In this document: piece after piece, positions 6,512-58,107 of the stretch
Layout of the letters: every line of letters begins with the position of its first letter
Numbering within the stretch: the first letter of the stretch is position 1
NCBI RefSeq assembly: GCF_001619985.1
Contig: NW_017264194.1
Coordinates: 186,001 to 250,000, forward strand
From: Xylona heveae TC161
Lineage: Eukaryota > Ascomycota > Xylonomycetes > Xylonales > Xylonaceae
Direction: 5' to 3'
Length of the DNA: 64,000 nt
Position numbers and translations under genes: made by a program
Notes under the pieces: generated by a model
Told to the model about the DNA's origin: nothing
What the model saw: only the letters and a program-made list of their open reading frames with translations
Database searches by the model: none

Positions 6512-6583
6512 GCCCTGCTGGCGCAATGGTAGCGCGCGAGACTTCTAATCTCGAGGCTGCGGGTTCGAGTCCCGCGTGGGGTG
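6512..6583 (+). tRNA. tRNA-Arg (anticodon UCU)
   Basis: The 72-nt sequence folds as a full cloverleaf. The acceptor arm 6512-6518 pairs with 6576-6582, including three G-U pairs. The D stem is GCGC/GCGC around loop AATGGTA. The anticodon stem CGAGA/TCTCG encloses loop CTTCTAA, with anticodon TCT at 6544-6546. The T arm GCGGG/CCCGC encloses TTCGAGT. The variable loop is five bases and the discriminator is G6583. There is no intron and CCA is not encoded, as in eukaryotes. It decodes AGA and probably AGG. The internal A and B boxes (TGGCGCAATGG and GGTTCGAGTCC) match RNA polymerase III promoters. Confidence 0.95.
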
Positions 6584-12962: not shown

Positions 12963-13507
12963 CGCGATGAAGATGATGGATGAAGCGTCTTTTTGACGTT
13001 ATATCAATATGGTCTTTTGGGATATCTACCAATGCCAATGATAATGCTTCAAAAGCCTCAAAGCTCCAGAGAGAAGCTACGCGAAAATACGCGAGATGAT
13101 TGGTGGAAAGAGGTGGAAGAGACGCGTGGTGACGCGCTCTACGTCATTGACAGCGGGTAAGCAGTGGTGAGAGCTAGACTTGATCAACTGACTGATTTTT
13201 AGTTTAACTAAGGTATGAGGACAATGTGACTATCGACGGGATCTAGACCAGCCAATTGACCCATCGCCCCTCTTCGTCACCCCACACCAACTACTACACT
13301 ACTCTTCTCCCACACAGTTGCTTCTCGTGCAACCAGCTCAGCTCAGCTTTATGCCGCATTGGCCTTCCAATTGAGAATACTTCCACCTGTCTTCTTACTC
13401 GACACGCAATGTGTCAAATGTGAAATCTTTTCTTGTCCCTGATTGAAACACCAAGATTTTCCCTCAATTGCTCCATTTATCTCTCTAGCGCCTGCTTCTC
13501 CTGAATC
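12963..13507. promoter_or_regulatory. Divergent promoter region between J-protein and deaminase genes
   Basis: This 545-bp interval separates two start codons pointing outward, so it must hold both promoters. A possible small spliced frame (13032-13156 plus 13203-13218, 46 residues) has a good intron between GTAAGC and TTTTTAG with a CTGAC branch. It may be a leader intron of the deaminase transcript or chance. Confidence 0.55.
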
Positions 13508-14068
13508 ATGGCTTCCGACTCCATTGCTCCTGGCGACCATCGAGCTTACATGGCGCTGGCTGTGTCGCTCGCCGAGCAATCCCCCCCACGGCCAACCAAT
13601 TTCCGAGTAGGGGCTGTCATTGTCGATGCCGCCGCGAACAAGATCCTTGCGACGGGCTATACGCTTGAGCTTCCCGGCAACACACATGCAGAACAGTGCT
13701 GCTTGGACAAGATTGCACAAGAACATAACATTTCGGAGGACCGAGTGGGCGAAGTATTGCCAAACGAAACCGTTCTTTATACTACCATGGAACCCTGCGG
13801 CAAGAGAATGAGTGGCCACCTGGATTGCGTCGCAAGGATTATGAGAACCAAAGACCACGGACACCCTGGCATCAGCAAGATCTACCTCGGAGTCAAGGAA
13901 CCTCGCATATTCGTGGGCCTCAATGCGGGTAGAACGCGCCTCTGGGGCCACGGCATCGAATGTGTACACGTCCCTGGTTTCGAAGACCAAATCCTCAAGA
14001 TTGCGACCGCTGGACATGATCAGTTCACGGGAAAGCACCAGCAACCTCCTCGCGCTCCGACTCTGTAA
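13508..14068 (+). CDS. Cytidine-deaminase-fold enzyme, RibD/Rib2-like pyrimidine deaminase
   Basis: A 186-residue intronless product with the complete zinc signature of the CDA superfamily: H60-A-E62, then P96-C97 and C107. The spacing and the TMEPCG context resemble the deaminase domain of RibD/Rib2 (2,5-diamino-6-ribitylamino-pyrimidinone phosphate deaminase, riboflavin pathway) more than free cytidine deaminases. E62 would shuttle the proton and H60, C97 and C107 bind zinc. The protein has no reductase or pseudouridine-synthase domain, so it is a stand-alone deaminase. Whether it serves riboflavin synthesis or deaminates another pyrimidine cannot be told from sequence. The start is the first ATG in frame and comes shortly before the folded core. 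The C-terminal 20 residues are polar and probably disordered. Confidence 0.85.
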   Translation: MASDSIAPGDHRAYMALAVSLAEQSPPRPTNFRVGAVIVDAAANKILATGYTLELPGNTHAEQCCLDKIAQEHNISEDRVGEVLPNETVLYTTMEPCGKRMSGHLDCVARIMRTKDHGHPGISKIYLGVKEPRIFVGLNAGRTRLWGHGIECVHVPGFEDQILKIATAGHDQFTGKHQQPPRAPTL

Positions 14069-16228: not shown

Positions 16229-18074
16229 CTATTCCTCCAAACCTTCATATTTAAATACCCAATGTCTCTCATTCTCCAATGCCATTTTTCTCTTAAAAGA
16301 CGTCTGCAGAACAATATCTCCCTCCATTCCATCCAGCCTGCCATAGTTTCCTTGTGTCATACTTCCCCCATCATCCAACATAGCATCTGCAAGATTACTC
16401 AACCGCCACATTTCACTAAAATCACCATTCTCTCTACTCCTTCTACTCTCATTACTTAGTCGCATAAACTCTCCTACTCTTAACAATTCCTCTCCTTCTT
16501 CTCCCCCTCTTGTACTCGCGCTCCTCCCGCTGCTTCTGACGCCCCATCGATTCTCAGCTCTGCGCATTCTAAACGGGACAACATTCTCCGGATCGAAGCT
16601 GAATCTTCGAGCCACATGATTATTCACTGCCAAGATTGGACCACGCAGTATTGGCGCCGCGTATAGCTGTTCCGGAAACGATCCTAACACGCTGAATCTC
16701 TTCCGGCAGAAGAATACATACTTTTGCCACAGAGTGCCTCTTATATCCTTGATACGGTCCTTGATGAAACGCGTCGGGATCTCAATGTGCAGAATCCCAG
16801 CCCCACGCGCAGTCCCAAGCATATTCGCAAATCCAAAAATGTCATGTCCGTTTAAGCGCCCGCTGTCAATGGTGATTTGCCTCACCCGGTCAATTCGACA
16901 CCGCGCGTAGTCCGCCATGTGTTTCGCATAGTGGTAGTTCTGCGTGAGATACAGCTGTGGCTCGTGGAACGAAAAGTCGCATTCGGTGCCCGTCATTAGT
17001 TGCGCGACTCCGGTGAGCGTGCCGGGGAAGGAACCCGGGACGCTGGTTTCGAGATGGAGTCGTGATCCGCCTTTGAAGAATATTGTTCGTGGTTCGCGCT
17101 CCCGGTTTCCTTCAACATCGTCTTTGTCATCATCCTCTTCCTCATCCTCCAAGTTATCTTCATATTCTTCAGGATCTGCTTCTTCCTCATCTGCATCTTC
17201 GTCCTCATCGTACATCTCGTCATCCTTTTCGTAATCAGTCATGTTTCCCCCTGTATAAACCTATTAAACTACTCACACTTGCCGTTTCAGATTCCTCACT
17301 ATCCTCCTCCTCATCGTCCGCATCCGCAGGGTTCTTCATTTCTTCATCTCTCTCTTCTCCACCCTCCCCATTTTCATCCACATCCACTCGTTTCCTCTTC
17401 CTCATATTCTGCCTACCAGCACCACCGATTCTACCAAAAACCTCTACAATCCTGTCCGAAAAAGTATTCAAAAATTCCCAATCATCCCTCATTGTCTCCA
17501 AACACCACTCACCCGCCGTCTTCATCATCCTTATATCCTTAAACTCCTCCGCGAGCACTGCATCTCTCAGACTTTCGTCCATGCCTATGCGCATCATGGC
17601 ATCGTCCCAATCATGTTCAGGCGCGCACGCATCTTCGTTTATTTCTGATCTGTTCATGTACTCGTGTACAAACGGCATAAGTGCCAAATAACGATAATTT
17701 CCCAGCAGATGCTTACCGCTAAGATGGTTCTTGTAGCGGGTGTATATCGTGTGTACAGCGCGGGGAGTGAACCCGAAGTATTCTAAAGTTTCGGGACTAT
17801 CAATGTATTCTGGGAATTCGATGACAGGGTCTACGTCTTTGAATCGCTGCGGGCTCTGATGTTGAGATTGCTGTTGGTTTTGGAGCGGCCGGACGGGCTT
17901 GTGCCCCAGCCCTGGAAGGACACCTTGATATTTCTTGGGAACGGTAAGTAATACCCATCCTGGCCGTGAAAGTGTTGGGCACGGGAAACCTGCAGAGCAG
18001 AGGGCCCAACGAGCGGAATGAGTCAGAGTTGGCCGTGCGGAAGGAGAACCTTGGAGGGAGTAAGTATATGTCAT
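16229..18074 (-). CDS. Two-domain protein: shared N-terminal helical domain plus ADP-ribosyltransferase-like (DUF3990-like) C-terminal domain, paralogue A
   Basis: CDS: complement(join(16229..17224,17277..18074)), 597 residues. The 52-nt intron 17225-17276 (GTGAGT donor, GACTGAT branch, AAG acceptor) joins two long frames in phase 0. The N-terminal part (about 12-205) aligns with the genes at 18574 and 19684 through PTLT, PGW, a SPETLEYFGF motif, a DWDDAM..IGM segment and a tryptophan-bearing helix. A very acidic linker (about 230-305) follows. The C-terminal part (about 313-475) has FFKGG, LYLTQNYHYAKHMADYA, ILHIEIPTRF, W-KYVFFCRKR and RGPI, in the same order as KGG..YFT..A..YA..W..FV..R..GPI in paralogue B. 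This order resembles DUF3990/ADP-ribosyltransferase-fold proteins. Enzymatic activity is unproven, and the motif residues differ from canonical transferases. It is divergent from the 18574 gene. Confidence 0.75.
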
Positions 18075-18573
18075 TTTGGAGGCTGCTTCTTAGGAACTCC
18101 GGCCTTGTCACTGATGAACGACACTGATAAAGTAGTGTATTGCAATTTAAAATACATTTTCATAGGAGATGAGCTTTTATATAAACTGTGAAAAAGGGTC
18201 TTAATACTACTAAAGAAGCCAGGTGGTTGAATCTTCGTCCTTCGGTCTGAGGTTACGTGTTAAGAACTTACGATTTTCGTTGCGGTTGCAGTTGCGGTCA
18301 CGTTTGGAATCGTAATCAGAAACGTGGTGTTTTGAGCTTTGATAGGTTTTGGTATAGTCTTTTGGAGTGTGGCGAGTCTGCGACTTGTCCAGTTTGACAT
18401 CTTCGAGTACTTAACCCAGCAGAGAAGCAGGTTTAGTCCTCTATTCCTGAGAAAAGCAAGTCTTACCAGACATTTCCTCTCTCACCTGGCTTCTCTCTCT
18501 TCTCCTTTACCTCTTTGCACAATAAAGAGTATTTCATGAATATATACTCGCTCGAAAAGCCAAAGACTCAAAG
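18075..18573. promoter_or_regulatory. Divergent promoter between two paralogous genes
   Basis: This 499-bp interval separates the start codons of paralogue A (minus strand) and the solo N-domain gene (plus strand), so both promoters lie here. A pyrimidine-rich stretch at about 18460-18515 precedes the plus-strand gene, as is common near fungal transcription starts. No specific operator was recognised. Confidence 0.6.
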
Positions 18574-19134
18574 ATGTCTCGAACCCCAACACTCACCGCC
18601 GAGGCGCGTGCGCGACTGGAGGCACTTGGCGCTCCTGCTGTCGATGGTCCAAAGCCAGGATGGTGTACGCTCACAGGTGGATCATACACCACTTCGTCCA
18701 CCGCGAGTAGTGGCAACAGCAAAGGGGACAAACCTGTTACGGTTCCAAGCTACATTGAAAGTCTAGAGACTCTGGAGTACTTTGGCTTTGAAGAATCGAC
18801 AGCCAACAGAATCTGGGACCGTTATATCAAATACCATGACGAAACACTTGAATTTATGGATTTTGTTACTGGGCACCTTCAAGGATGCCAGGATGCCATT
18901 GCGAAGGACGATGACTGGAACAAAGCCATGGAAGAAATGGGCATCGGCAAGCGCCTGAGAGAGGCCATTTTGGATCCAGATTTTGACGAGATTCGTCTGA
19001 CTGGATCTGCTAGGACCTGGGTCCTTGATACCATCCAAAACAGTCGCTCATATTTGAAAATGATGTCTCCGTGTATTACGGGACGTGTTGATGTGGACAC
19101 CCGTTATTGGCCAAGACCTGATTTACACCCTTGA
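18574..19134 (+). CDS. Solo copy of the shared N-terminal domain (paralogue C, no ART-like domain)
   Basis: A 186-residue single-exon product very similar to the first 170 or so residues of the 19684 gene: TPTLTAEA near the start, PGW, TGGSY, then YIESLETLEYFGF, the IWDRYIKYHD helix, DDDWNKAMEEMGI, DPDFDEIRL and a shared end at MMSPCI. It then runs about 14 unrelated residues to a stop. Nothing downstream resembles the KGG...GPI domain, so this gene carries the N-terminal domain alone. It could be a regulator or competitor of its two-domain relatives, or a shortened duplicate; the sequence cannot decide. The reading frame of the domain is intact, without stops, which argues for selection or a recent origin. 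It converges with the 19684 gene. Confidence 0.75.
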   Translation: MSRTPTLTAEARARLEALGAPAVDGPKPGWCTLTGGSYTTSSTASSGNSKGDKPVTVPSYIESLETLEYFGFEESTANRIWDRYIKYHDETLEFMDFVTGHLQGCQDAIAKDDDWNKAMEEMGIGKRLREAILDPDFDEIRLTGSARTWVLDTIQNSRSYLKMMSPCITGRVDVDTRYWPRPDLHP

Positions 19135-19683
19135 TTGTAGCAAGATTTGAATGGGACGGCATGAGGAGGATAAATGAAACAGGCATCAGATCATCTTCTC
19201 AGTTTTGGCTCCACTATGAGTGTCTTTAAATACCAAGCTTGATGATTTGAGCAACGGATAACGATGATTAAGGGCAGGGTCAAAGCACTACCAACACAGG
19301 GAAAAGCTACAGAGACTATTTTGTTTTGTTTTCCTTAAAAGCTATGTGCATGTATTTGTTTGCCAGAATCACATAGCAAAACTGATGAAATACAAGATAA
19401 AGAGTTTCACTTGAGAATCATGTATTTCTTTGTATAACTATCATGCACAAGGATATATTCATAATCATGTGCTGATATTAGTTTATCAATAGTCAACCAG
19501 AAGCAATTTATTGAGCGCTGCGAACCTATGCTGGCTAATTAATGAACAGAGCAAAGTAAAATACTTGGTGCTTCTTGTAACGTAGATTTAAAGTTCTTTC
19601 TCTCTTAGCAGTCTGTTATAAAAAGAATTCTGGATCTTTTCGCACACGAGTAGAAAAGCAATTCGGTTCTTCAAATTGAGCAA
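19135..19683. other. Convergent intergenic region between two paralogues
   Basis: AT-rich sequence between two gene 3' ends. I looked for remnants of the ART-like domain missing from the left gene and saw none. No RNA gene was recognised. Confidence 0.6.
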
Positions 19684-21060
19684 CTACTTCCCAGGCTGCC
19701 AAAGACCGTAGTCCTCCACCCAGCACCGACATTCCTCTGCGATCTCAAAAAGCATCGTTGGTGTGAAGGCAAATTGGGCCGGGGTATTTCCGTCGACTTT
19801 ATAGGGCTGGACGTCTTCAATGGTTGCGTCGCGTGCCTCGTCGATGCTCGCCGTCCAAATTGGCCCAATGAGAAGTTCGGCGGCGCGATATGGCCGGAGG
19901 TCATGGGGTATGGCAGCACGCTCTCGACGACCGCAAAGGACAAATCTTTTCCAATCATCGCCATAGATCTGCACCGCGTTTTCCAAGAGACGAGTAGGGA
20001 CGGTAACCTGCAGAATGCCCATATGTTTATCTTCTTGGATCGAGCGTCTGCCGGCCCAATTCGCATACATTTCCGCTACCTTAATGTCTTTTGTAAAATA
20101 GACACGGAATGTTGCCCCGGCCCCGAAGTCGGATGGTGGTTTCGTAGTGAGGCTGGCGAGTCCTCTATTTCCATCGGTATCTTCGTCCGGCACGGCTTTC
20201 TTCAGCCGAGAACTTATGCCTCCCTTGTAGAGCACGGTTACAGCTTCTTGGGGTTTGGGTGCCGCAGTTGTCAGCGAAAGTGCCTCCCTGGATTTTGATC
20301 CGGATGGAGGCGAAGAGGCCTCGACCTTGGCTGTCTTTTCTGCCGGCTTTTCAGGTGCAGGTGCGGCTTCTGACTTTGCTCGTCGTTTTCCTTTGCCTTT
20401 GGAGGCCCCAGCAGGATCCTGTTGTGACCCAGAGTACGTCGAGATCGGAGTGCTCGGCTGTCCCACTGACTCTTCCGAGAATATGGACGGGACATGAGTC
20501 TCCGCAGTGGCTGTTGAAGGAGCGGGAGAGGTGGCGTCGCTGACAAAGGAGGCAAAAGATACGTTCCCAGAGATGCAAGGGGACATCATGGAAAGATACG
20601 CATAAGTGTCTTCGATCGTGTCAAGAACCCAGAAGGCGGCAGTTTGTCTTAATCGGATTTCGTCGAATTCGGGATCAAGGATTGCGTCTCTCAGGCGTTT
20701 GGTGATACCCATTTCCTTCATAGCTTTGTCCCAGTCATCATTTCTTCCACTAGTATCATGACATCCTTCAATATAACTGTAAACACAATCCATGAATGTA
20801 AGCCAGTTGTCGTGGTATTTTTGGTAGTGGTCCCAAATTTTTGTTGCGGCTGGCTCGTCAAATCCAAAGTACTGCAGGGTTTCGAGACTTTCGAGATACA
20901 TGGGTACCTCCACGGGCTTTCTGCTACCGCTGCTGGACGCGCTGTCATATGAACCGCCAGAGAGAGAACGCCAGCCTGGCTTTCTGCCAGGAACAGCCGG
21001 AGCACCTATTGCAGACAGGCGTGCGAGCGCGTCGGCGGTCAGCGTCGGAGTAAGGGGCAT
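19684..21060 (-). CDS. Two-domain protein: shared N-terminal helical domain plus ADP-ribosyltransferase-like (DUF3990-like) C-terminal domain, paralogue B
   Basis: A 458-residue product in one exon. The N-terminal domain (about 4-175) has TPTLTADA, PGW, SGGSY, YLESLETLQYFGF, DDWDKAMKEMGI, DPEFDEIRL and MMSPCI and is close to paralogue C. Residues about 180-270 are a Ser/Pro/Ala/Lys-rich linker with a basic KGKGKRR stretch. The C-terminal domain (275-410) reads LYKGG (277-281), DFGAG then YFT, an A..YA.WA helix, GILQVTVPTR, W-KRFV..RR, LIGPI (397-401) and a final Q-FAFTPTML strand. This order matches DUF3990-type ADP-ribosyltransferase-like domains, where a Y-H-G replaces YKGG and D-x-V-x-GP precedes the end. 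NAD+ use is therefore a hypothesis. The leader appears to contain two introns (21067-21159 and 21338-21405). The start matches that of paralogue C. Confidence 0.8.
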   Translation of the reverse strand: MPLTPTLTADALARLSAIGAPAVPGRKPGWRSLSGGSYDSASSSGSRKPVEVPMYLESLETLQYFGFDEPAATKIWDHYQKYHDNWLTFMDCVYSYIEGCHDTSGRNDDWDKAMKEMGITKRLRDAILDPEFDEIRLRQTAAFWVLDTIEDTYAYLSMMSPCISGNVSFASFVSDATSPAPSTATAETHVPSIFSEESVGQPSTPISTYSGSQQDPAGASKGKGKRRAKSEAAPAPEKPAEKTAKVEASSPPSGSKSREALSLTTAAPKPQEAVTVLYKGGISSRLKKAVPDEDTDGNRGLASLTTKPPSDFGAGATFRVYFTKDIKVAEMYANWAGRRSIQEDKHMGILQVTVPTRLLENAVQIYGDDWKRFVLCGRRERAAIPHDLRPYRAAELLIGPIWTASIDEARDATIEDVQPYKVDGNTPAQFAFTPTMLFEIAEECRCWVEDYGLWQPGK

Positions 21061-22290: not shown

Positions 22291-23874
22291 ATGACCACGA
22301 CCACATTCACGACCACTCGCACATTTGATCGCACATCTGCTTTGCGACATACACGACCTCGAAATGAAAAGGATGTAGTCTTATCCTCGGGGCAGCGACA
22401 TCAGCCGCTGCAACCTCCGCTACGCTACTACCCGGCTTATTGCTTCCCCGCATCGCCGACATTCGGGACTTGGGCACACTTGAGCATCGCAGACGTGCGT
22501 CGTCTGGATAGCATAGATGGATATGATTGTACGTTTGACATCTCATGCGTCTATGACTGAGATGAGAACTCCCCAATCTGTCGAGCAGCTGTACTAACTT
22601 TGTATCCACCAGTTCAAAGTATCTATTTCCACTTGAACCACCCTATCAAATATGTCCGTCTTGTCGGGATCATTATTGCATTTGACCAGTACGAAACCCG
22701 TAACGTCCTGACACTAGACGATGGTTCAGGCGCCACCATCGAAGTCGGGTGCCGACGGACCGAAGAAGAGATTCAAGCGCAGGCTCAAATACGAGCAGGT
22801 CTTGATCCATCAAGCGATCTTTACACCGGCAACGGAACGGGCTTAAAGTCCACTACTACCGGTGCCGGCAAGGACAAGGACAAGGCTCTTGCAAATGATC
22901 GCAAGGCTTCCGGTAATACAGCCACGGACCAAGGGATCAACTTAAGCTGCTACGACGTCGGCTCCATTGTCAAAGTCAAAGGCCTCATTAAGGTATTCCG
23001 TGGCACTCGACAATTGGAACTAAAGCGAATAAGTCCCATAACCTCCACGACTCAAGAAATGCACGCATGGGAAGAGAATACGCATTTTCGCACTACTATC
23101 CTCTCTACGCCATGGTACGTATCGCCGGCGAAGGAACAACAACTTTTCGATGAAGCAAACGGTGCGCGACGGAGAGAACAAGAAAAAATCAAGCGCCATC
23201 AAGCGCGGAAACGGAAACAAGCAGAGCGCGAAAAGCGTCATTTGGAACGCGAGAAGGAGCGGCAGCGGAAGAAGGAGAAGCTAGAGGAGCAGGCCAGACT
23301 TTCGTCTCGAAAGCCCGGCGGTCGTATTCGCAGCAAGGGTGGCAACCACAGAAATGAAGAAGCCGAAGAAATGTTTCGAGGAAATCCACTGGACGTCAGG
23401 CCCGGAGCTATACATGTTCCTATTCGGACGCAGGATGTAGCGCGACAACAAAGACAACGAGATATTTCCCCACCGCCAAAAACTACTTCCAAACTACATT
23501 CGAAGTCGAAGCTAGAGTCTAAGCTCGGCCAAGAGAACCAGTCATCAAAGAAACGTGTCCGAGACGAAGCTTTTCCTATGACAGATCGCACACGATTACC
23601 GGAACGACGTGTTTCGAACAAAGACCAGACAGCAAGGCGCAGCAGCTCCTCCTCCTCGTCCGCGGCGTCAGATTCATCATCCACATCGTCCGATGAGCAA
23701 ACGAGGCCGCCCGCAAAGTCCCGTACTCGAGACTCACATCGCTCACCACGCTCGCATGTTACTACTCAACATGGACGTGGACACCGAGATGGGCGTGCCC
23801 ATGCCAATAAGATGCAGCAGATCCAGAATACTAGTATAAAGCCCGTCGGAGATTTTGACGCTCTTGGTCTTTAA
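22291..23874 (+). CDS. STN1: CST-complex telomere-capping subunit Stn1
   Basis: CDS: join(22291..22528,22613..23874), 499 residues. The 84-nt intron has a GTACGT donor, a perfect TACTAAC branch at 22592-22598 and a CCAG acceptor; its removal joins GYD to FQSIYFHLNHPI in frame. Stn1 binds Ten1 and single-stranded telomeric DNA, protecting chromosome ends and helping lagging-strand fill-in by polymerase alpha. The OB fold covers about 48-260: YYPAYCF..SPTFGTWA, IYFHLNHPIKYVRLVGIIIAFD and VLTLDDGSGATIEV are the classic first strands, and GSIVKVKGLIKVFRGTRQLELKRI the last. Residues 75-200 include a Gly/Lys/Thr-rich inserted loop. After the OB fold comes a long basic coiled coil (RRREQEKIKRHQARKRKQAEREKR) and a Ser/Arg-rich tail. 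No C-terminal winged-helix pair was recognised. A possible alternative start would lie farther downstream. Confidence 0.9.
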
Positions 23875-58043: not shown

Positions 58044-58107
58044 CCATCGATCTGTCGGTCCATCGATCTGTCGGTCCATCGATCTGTCGGTCCATCGATC
58101 TATCGAT
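58044..58107. repeat. 16-bp minisatellite, four units
   Basis: Four consecutive copies of CCATCGATCTGTCGGT. The first three are identical and the fourth is changed at its end. Each unit contains the palindrome ATCGAT. With no spacers, it is not a CRISPR array. Confidence 0.9.

What the first reader, a model, noticed from the sequence alone, without database searches (positions are those of the whole stretch)
16229..21060. Three-gene paralogue cluster with a shared helical domain and a DUF3990/ADP-ribosyltransferase-like domain
Seen: three neighbouring genes (16229-18074 minus, 18574-19134 plus, 19684-21060 minus) share an N-terminal domain with PTLT, PGW, a SLETLEYFGF-type motif and a DDW..AM..IG segment. 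Two of them add a KGG...YFT...A..YA...W..FV..R...GPI domain. Known: DUF3990-type and other ADP-ribosyltransferase-fold proteins show YHG...DFG.GFY.T...A..WA...W..FV..R...D.V.GP in the same order. Inferred: these are fungal ART-like proteins whose N-terminal domain may set target or activation, and the cluster grew by local duplication and inversion. This is the best candidate in the window for an undescribed system.
Basis: partly seen in the sequence, partly recalled or inferred. Interest (0 to 1): 0.8.

Follow-up and report, generated by a model that had tools for sequence, protein, structure and literature searches.

The report
Fungal ADP-ribosyltransferase-like gene trio
Three neighbouring, anciently duplicated fungal genes share an unidentified front domain, and two of them also carry what looks like a distant relative of ADP-ribosyltransferases with an unusual lysine in the predicted active site, so they may be overlooked modifying enzymes.

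Summary
B and C share an N-terminal domain (61% over 172 aa), A is a more distant paralogue (31% over 192 aa), and A and C carry a second, C-terminal domain (24% over 181 aa). Pfam, NCBIfam, PHROGs and PDB sequences gave no significant match. The ART-like reading of the C-terminal domain is supported, at a distance: the A+C pair matches a profile of 87 DUF3990-type sequences better than 200 of 200 shuffles and 450 of 450 other ORFs; A alone does not stand out. With 26 DUF3990-type rows AlphaFold2 gives pLDDT 85 (with the paralogue only, 29); Foldseek's best solved match is the ADP-ribosylating toxin ParT. The three active-site positions fall on modelled strands 1, 2 and 5. The first is lysine in both paralogues, histidine in 87 of 87 DUF3990-type sequences: K-Y-Q, resembling ParT's reported R-Y-N. 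So: a distant ART-fold relative, not a DUF3990 member; catalysis unproven. The N-domain is unidentified; B keeps it without the ART domain. One paper already reports transfer of a similar ART type into fungi.

The parts
19684..21060 (-). gene C, 458 aa, single exon: N-domain + basic/low-complexity linker + ART-like domain
   Evidence: ORF; paralogy
20560..21060 (-). C N-terminal domain, residues 1-167 (unidentified family)
   Evidence: 61% identical to B; no significant family hit for the whole protein or for the B and A copies of this domain
20374..20400 (-). basic stretch KGKGKRRAK in the linker of C, possible nuclear-localisation signal
   Evidence: pattern scan; function inferred
19687..20250 (-). 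C ART-like domain, residues 271-458
   Evidence: profile match to DUF3990-type sequences, AlphaFold2 model, Foldseek
20224..20226 (-). C motif I, K279 (histidine in DUF3990-type sequences), on modelled strand 1
20098..20100 (-). C motif II, Y321, on modelled strand 2
19774..19776 (-). C motif III, Q429, on modelled strand 5
18574..19134 (+). gene B, 186 aa: N-domain only, no ART-like domain
   Evidence: ORF, 61% to C, tblastn finds no ART remnant downstream
16229..18074 (-). gene A (two ORFs, probably joined by one intron, 597 aa)
17439..18074 (-). A N-terminal domain, residues 1-212
   Evidence: 31% to C, alignment
17388..17402 (-). basic stretch RKRKR in the linker of A, possible nuclear-localisation signal, followed by an acidic run
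   Evidence: function inferred
17225..17276 (-). candidate intron of A (GTGAGT..CTGAT..AAG)
   Evidence: frame and splice-site scan; not proven
16232..17110 (-). A ART-like domain, with two large insertions relative to C
   Evidence: 24% to C, alignment
17072..17074 (-). A motif I lysine (K57 of the 337-aa ORF)
16949..16951 (-). A motif II tyrosine (Y98)
16304..16306 (-). A motif III glutamine (Q313)
   Evidence: (two of three alignment modes)

Best explanation
A and C are intracellular, possibly nuclear, two-domain proteins whose C-terminal domain has the ADP-ribosyltransferase fold and most likely binds NAD+ in a cleft lined by Lys (strand 1), Tyr (strand 2) and Gln (strand 5), transferring one ADP-ribose to an unknown target. 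The N-terminal domain, shared by all three, most likely supplies binding (target or partner); B, which keeps that domain alone, would then compete for or tether the same partner. Shown here: paralogy, a distant sequence relation to DUF3990 (mainly through C), a predicted fold that depends on DUF3990-type rows, and the K-Y-Q positions in both paralogues. Inferred: NAD+ binding, transfer, location, the roles of the N-domain and of B.
For: Profile-profile score 33.8 (probability 64, P 6.5e-5) of the A+C pair against 87 DUF3990-type sequences; 0 of 200 column shuffles reach it (maximum 21.2), reversed 12.1; 0 of 450 other ORFs, given as single sequences (maximum 27.7); C alone 29.4. HMMER with the same sequences: C domain E 3.6e-4 among 6 targets. 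MAFFT lines up 7 columns invariant in 28 of 28 rows (D, F, Y, T, W, R, Q), both fungal rows included. AlphaFold2 pLDDT 85.4, pTM 0.82; its six strands of three or more residues (4-12, 50-53, 76-85, 126-130, 158-162, 175-183) put positions 9, 51 and 159 on strands 1, 2 and 5, where a review places the ART active-site residues (PMC7827354, passages). Foldseek: all four matches at E 0.001 or better are ParT chains (best 6d0h, E 8.7e-5, probability 1.00); entries of PARP2/HPF1, tankyrase, exotoxin A and cholix follow at E 0.0017 to 0.03. ParT's residues are reported as R-Y-N, a basic-Tyr-amide set like K-Y-Q. No strongly hydrophobic N-terminal segment (best 19-residue mean hydropathy 0.28 to 0.92 near the N-termini).
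Against: The motif I histidine, important for NAD+ binding in H-Y-E enzymes, is absent from both copies. A alone does not stand out from the null (15.8; HMMER E 0.19 against 0.23 for B, which has no ART domain). With four DUF3990 sequences hhalign gave only E 0.07, probability 0.8%. DUF3990-conserved columns are only weakly the ones conserved between A and C (13 of 33 against 40 of 148, p 0.12; 0.03 and 0.04 in two other alignment modes). TM-scores to ParT are about 0.5 to 0.6 at rmsd above 5. In the viral library the three matches at E 0.001 or better bear no ART name. No fungal relatives could be reached, and there is no function test.
Confidence: 0.55

Rival explanations
1. ART-fold pseudoenzyme: the domain keeps the fold and perhaps binds NAD+ or ADP-ribose, or a protein partner, but does not transfer, because the motif I histidine has become lysine.
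For: Histidine is kept in 87 of 87 DUF3990-type sequences gathered and is lysine in both fungal copies. PMC7955679 (passages) lists PARP13, which lacks the histidine, as inactive and suggests that LRRC9 is a pseudoenzyme.
Against: Y and Q are kept in both copies although these are only about 24-30% identical, and so is the lysine, which looks like a selected variant. ParT is reported to modify Prs although its residues are R-Y-N.
Confidence: 0.3
2. Not an ART: the C-terminal domain belongs to an unrelated fungal family, and the motif resemblance plus the DUF3990-rich alignment produced the model.
For: Two-row model fails; A alone is within the null; no significant database hit.
Against: C alone scores above 450 of 450 null ORFs (29.4 against 27.7 at most); 0 of 200 shuffles reach the pair's score; the third motif is shared by A and C in an alignment without DUF3990 rows; the model is confident over 161 of 188 residues and puts three active-site positions on the expected strands.
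Confidence: 0.12
3. A is not one gene but two, or is broken: its N-part and ART-part lie in different frames.
For: Stop at 17235-17237 and ATG at 17242 in another frame; the best intron uses an AAG acceptor.
Against: C has the same order of domains in one frame; the splice gives one open frame and a continuous acidic linker; A's N-part stays open at near-saturated synonymous divergence from C.
Confidence: 0.12

Closest known systems
DUF3990 (PF13151)
   Same: Order of motifs [YF]KGG against YHGS, DF, Y.T, A, W..[FY]..R, GP/GG, Q; distant profile match
   Different: Lysine for the histidine; GKGF before the motif II tyrosine not kept (C has DFGAG and four extra residues; A has DFS); below Pfam detection; joined to an N-domain of its own
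Tox-ART-HYD2 of polymorphic toxins (PMC3482391, passages)
   Same: Listed signature H, D, GFY, W, R resembles DUF3990; reported in fungi
   Different: That this is the same family as DUF3990 is my reading of the signature, not tested; signature H and GFY not met here
ParT (PDB 6d0h), ADP-ribosylating toxin of a toxin-antitoxin pair
   Same: Best solved fold match; basic-Tyr-amide active site, reported R-Y-N (PMC7827354, passages)
   Different: 11% identity, TM about 0.5; two-domain protein in a fungus; no antitoxin recognised
PARP and diphtheria/exotoxin-A-type H-Y-E enzymes
   Same: Weaker fold matches; Tyr on strand 2
   Different: K and Q instead of H and E

Membership tests
DUF3990 (PF13151) | score above Pfam's gathering cut-off | tested here: not met
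   no DUF3990 hit listed at E up to 10 for the two domains (HMMER's filters on)
DUF3990 (PF13151) | motif I histidine (YHG[ST]) | tested here: not met
   H in 87 of 87 DUF3990-type sequences (four of the 87 checked against Pfam, the rest taken by tblastn similarity); K in both A and C
DUF3990 (PF13151) | DFGKGFY.T motif | tested here: not met
   D, F, Y and T kept in both; GKGF not kept. The collection was gathered by this motif, so its frequency there means nothing
DUF3990 (PF13151) | W..F..xR and the C-terminal glutamine | tested here: met
   W, R and Q in 28 of 28 rows, F is Y in A; Q in 86 of 87 DUF3990-type sequences, one gap. One of three alignment modes did not align A's Q
ADP-ribosyltransferase superfamily | ART fold with a six-strand core | tested here: met
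   model and Foldseek hits, conditional on DUF3990-type rows in the alignment; not met with two rows. The split of the sheet was not inspected (no coordinates at hand)
ADP-ribosyltransferase superfamily | active-site residues on strands 1, 2, 5 | tested here: met
   positions 9, 51, 159 against the strands, counted in sequence order
H-Y-[EDQ] clade | His-Tyr-[Glu/Asp/Gln] | tested here: not met
   Lys-Tyr-Gln
ADP-ribosyltransferase superfamily | NAD+-dependent ADP-ribose transfer | not testable with these tools
   needs an assay
ParT/ParS | a cognate antitoxin next to the toxin gene | tested here: inconclusive
   no antitoxin family hit among the 10 frames scanned or for A, B, C, but not all neighbouring frames were scanned and the N-domain is unidentified

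The most novel reading that the evidence does not exclude
The trio is a fungal in-house effector-and-modulator set: two ART-fold enzymes of a new K-Y-Q clade, aimed by an N-domain not described before, with B, a sister that lost the enzyme domain and kept the aiming domain, acting as their brake or immunity partner.
Probability: 0.12. Interest if true: 0.7.

Novelty: new variant of a known kind. Interest (0 to 1): 0.42.

Why it matters
If active, it would add a basic-Tyr-amide (K-Y-Q) type to the ART active sites, with ParT's R-Y-N as precedent, and would give fungi an ADP-ribosylation route that the family libraries searched here miss. The N-domain, which matched none of the libraries searched, would be a new module in fungal NAD+ biology.

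Tried and rejected
Sequence searches that gave nothing: Pfam, PHROGs and NCBIfam at E up to 10 for four pieces (best hits E 0.085 to 0.34, taken as noise; NCBIfam none); PDB sequences with C, A9, A4 and A2 (best 0.48, taken as noise); viral contigs with A1, A2, C, B and A (patterns matched, none confirmed by tblastn); genome contigs with A1; phages (13 records, the ten listed all tail-fibre genes at E 2) and plasmids (none); 5 bacterial genomes with A4 (which by its own note shows nothing). PADLOC was not searched. No collection of fungal genomes was open to me, so absence of relatives here says nothing about fungi.

Two-row AlphaFold2 of the ART-like domain was useless. An alignment of full-length C with all rows smeared the DUF3990-type rows over the N-domain and was not used for folding. 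The N-domain was not folded: both jobs went to the ART-like domain. An amphipathicity test of the N-domain was weak.

Rows dropped: of 101 loci fetched (L002-L102) 87 were used for the profile: all 80 (the best 80 of 566, itself a capped list) plus 7 viral. The other 14: L009, L010, L012, L013, L014, L017, L019, L020 and L021 (same contigs as, or near-copies of, rows used; L012 and L019 judged by identical match figures only), L003, L006 and L007 (long proteins with the motif only), L022 (contig of L003) and L016 (frame ends early). Four of the 87 were checked against Pfam. Of the 87, 27 stayed under 55% mutual identity and 26 went into A9 (the 124-aa fragment L026 was left out). The null used 450 of 559 ORFs, as single sequences, against a two-row query.

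Literature: ten searches (one search was too loose, 29,972 papers) showed no description of this fungal family in their listings; only passages of PMC3482391, PMC7955679 and PMC7827354 were read, the rest seen as listings with abstract starts.
Full report
What is there. The window is fungal by its neighbours: of ten frames scanned against Pfam eight gave hits, among them Stn1, Utp14, a GH81 glucanase domain, a sodium/calcium exchanger, a DNAJC9-type protein, a deaminase and an RRM protein with five matched stretches; two frames gave none. That this means an ascomycete-like fungus is my inference; no genome is held for the window. Genes A (minus), B (plus) and C (minus) lie side by side: A and B point away from each other, B and C towards each other. 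B and C share a 61% identical N-domain; A's is 31% identical to C's; A and C share a C-terminal domain at 24%. No other copy shows in the window.

Age and history. Between B and C synonymous differences are near saturation (pS 0.748) while non-synonymous ones are not (pN 0.231); between A and C 0.863 and 0.429 (N-domains). I infer from open frames at such distance that both sides have been kept by selection, B included. Since A is the more distant of the three and has the ART-like domain, the simplest history is that B lost it (inference); no remnant is found downstream of B by tblastn.

Gene A. Its halves lie in different frames. Many GT/GC-AG introns would join them; the one I judge most fungal-looking is 17225-17276, giving 597 aa with a continuous acidic linker. 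This is a prediction.

The C-terminal domain. Library searches gave nothing significant. A profile of 87 of these finds the C domain by HMMER at E 3.6e-4 among six targets, A's at 0.19, about the same as B's 0.23, which has no such domain. Scaled to the size of Pfam the C value would not be significant, which fits the empty library search; the test here is of one named hypothesis. Profile-profile comparison of the A+C pair gives score 33.8, P 6.5e-5; none of 200 column shuffles reaches it (best 21.2) and the reversed pair gives 12.1. Of 450 other ORFs (from 559), each a single sequence, the best gives 27.7; C alone gives 29.4, A alone 15.8. With only four DUF3990 sequences the comparison was not significant (E 0.07). 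So the signal rests mainly on C, sharpened by A.

Third motif. Aligning C and A to their ends, without DUF3990 rows, shows AQFAFTPTML / LQTSFKRKMAL, and in the joint alignment both glutamines fall on the C-terminal glutamine that is present in 86 of 87 DUF3990-type sequences, one gap. In separate alignments of each fungal domain to the 26 rows, C's glutamine is placed there in three of three MAFFT modes and A's in two of three. At the 12 columns invariant in the 26 rows (local mode) A and C agree at 8, against 45 of 169 elsewhere (counted by hand; p 0.006; a cut chosen after seeing the looser one); at the 80% cut the excess is weak (p 0.12, 0.03, 0.04 in three modes).

Model. With its paralogue alone the domain does not fold in AlphaFold2 (pLDDT 28.9). 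With 26 DUF3990-type rows added the same 188 residues reach pLDDT 85.4, pTM 0.82, 161 of 188 residues at 70 or above. The model has six strands of three or more residues and seven helices, a long one after strand 2; K279, Y321 and Q429 lie on strands 1, 2 and 5, the places that a review gives for the ART residues (PMC7827354, passages). I did not see coordinates, so the cleft and the split of the sheet were not inspected. Foldseek's four solved matches at E 0.001 or better are all ParT chains (best 8.7e-5); PARP2/HPF1 entries (which chain was not checked), tankyrase, a Vibrio toxin-antitoxin entry, exotoxin A and cholix follow at 0.0017 to 0.03 (50 of 138 matches shown). Among predicted viral proteins the three best bear no ART name, but three named PolyVal-type ARTs and one NAD(+) ADP-ribosyltransferase appear lower (E 0.02 to 0.21). 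The borrowed rows could favour this fold; I could not run an unrelated query in the same rows as a control.

Active site. DUF3990-type sequences are H-Y-Q in this collection: H 87 of 87, Y 87 of 87 (by construction of the search), Q 86 of 87. Both fungal copies are K-Y-Q. In H-Y-E enzymes the histidine is important for NAD+ binding; PARP13, which lacks it, is listed as inactive and LRRC9 is suspected to be (PMC7955679, passages). Yet ParT, the best fold match, is reported as R-Y-N and modifies Prs, by a mechanism the review calls unclear. A basic residue, tyrosine and amide is thus a set with a working precedent, and its keeping in two copies with about 70-75% of residues changed suggests use. 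I put catalysis at about even odds.

Setting. There is no strongly hydrophobic N-terminal segment in A, B or C, so they are probably not classically secreted (inference; no signal-peptide predictor was at hand). A and C carry a basic stretch in the linker (RKRKR; KGKGKRRAK), compatible with nuclear import; B has no linker, and B and C share a short KRLR inside the N-domain. The N-domain matched nothing significant in the libraries searched; its role as aiming or partner-binding domain is inferred from its presence in all three genes and alone in B.

Relation to what is known. The domain looks most like an ART, with ParT as nearest solved structure and DUF3990 as nearest sequence family, but fails DUF3990's own features at motif I, GKGF and score. 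Transfer of Tox-ART-HYD2 (signature H, D, GFY, W, R, which I read as DUF3990-like, untested) into fungi was noted in 2012 (PMC3482391, passages). So the general kind is known; the K-Y-Q variant, the fusion to this N-domain and the ART-less sister did not appear in my ten literature searches, which cover only open-licence papers.

Noticed in passing
13505-14065 (+): Single-ORF deaminase matching Pfam Inv-AAD (E 4.4e-57), named for invertebrate AID/APOBEC-like deaminases, about 2 kb from gene A.
   Followed up: no
22561-23871 (+): Stn1-like frame (Pfam E 2e-13) with a long charged C-terminal tail, about 1.5 kb from gene C.
   Followed up: no
58044-58105: Nearly perfect 16-bp tandem repeat, 3.9 copies of CCATCGATCTGTCGGT.
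   Followed up: no
6512-6583 (+): tRNA-Arg(TCT) gene, in the 2-kb stretch with the lowest GC of the window (0.39).
   Followed up: no
   Followed up: no
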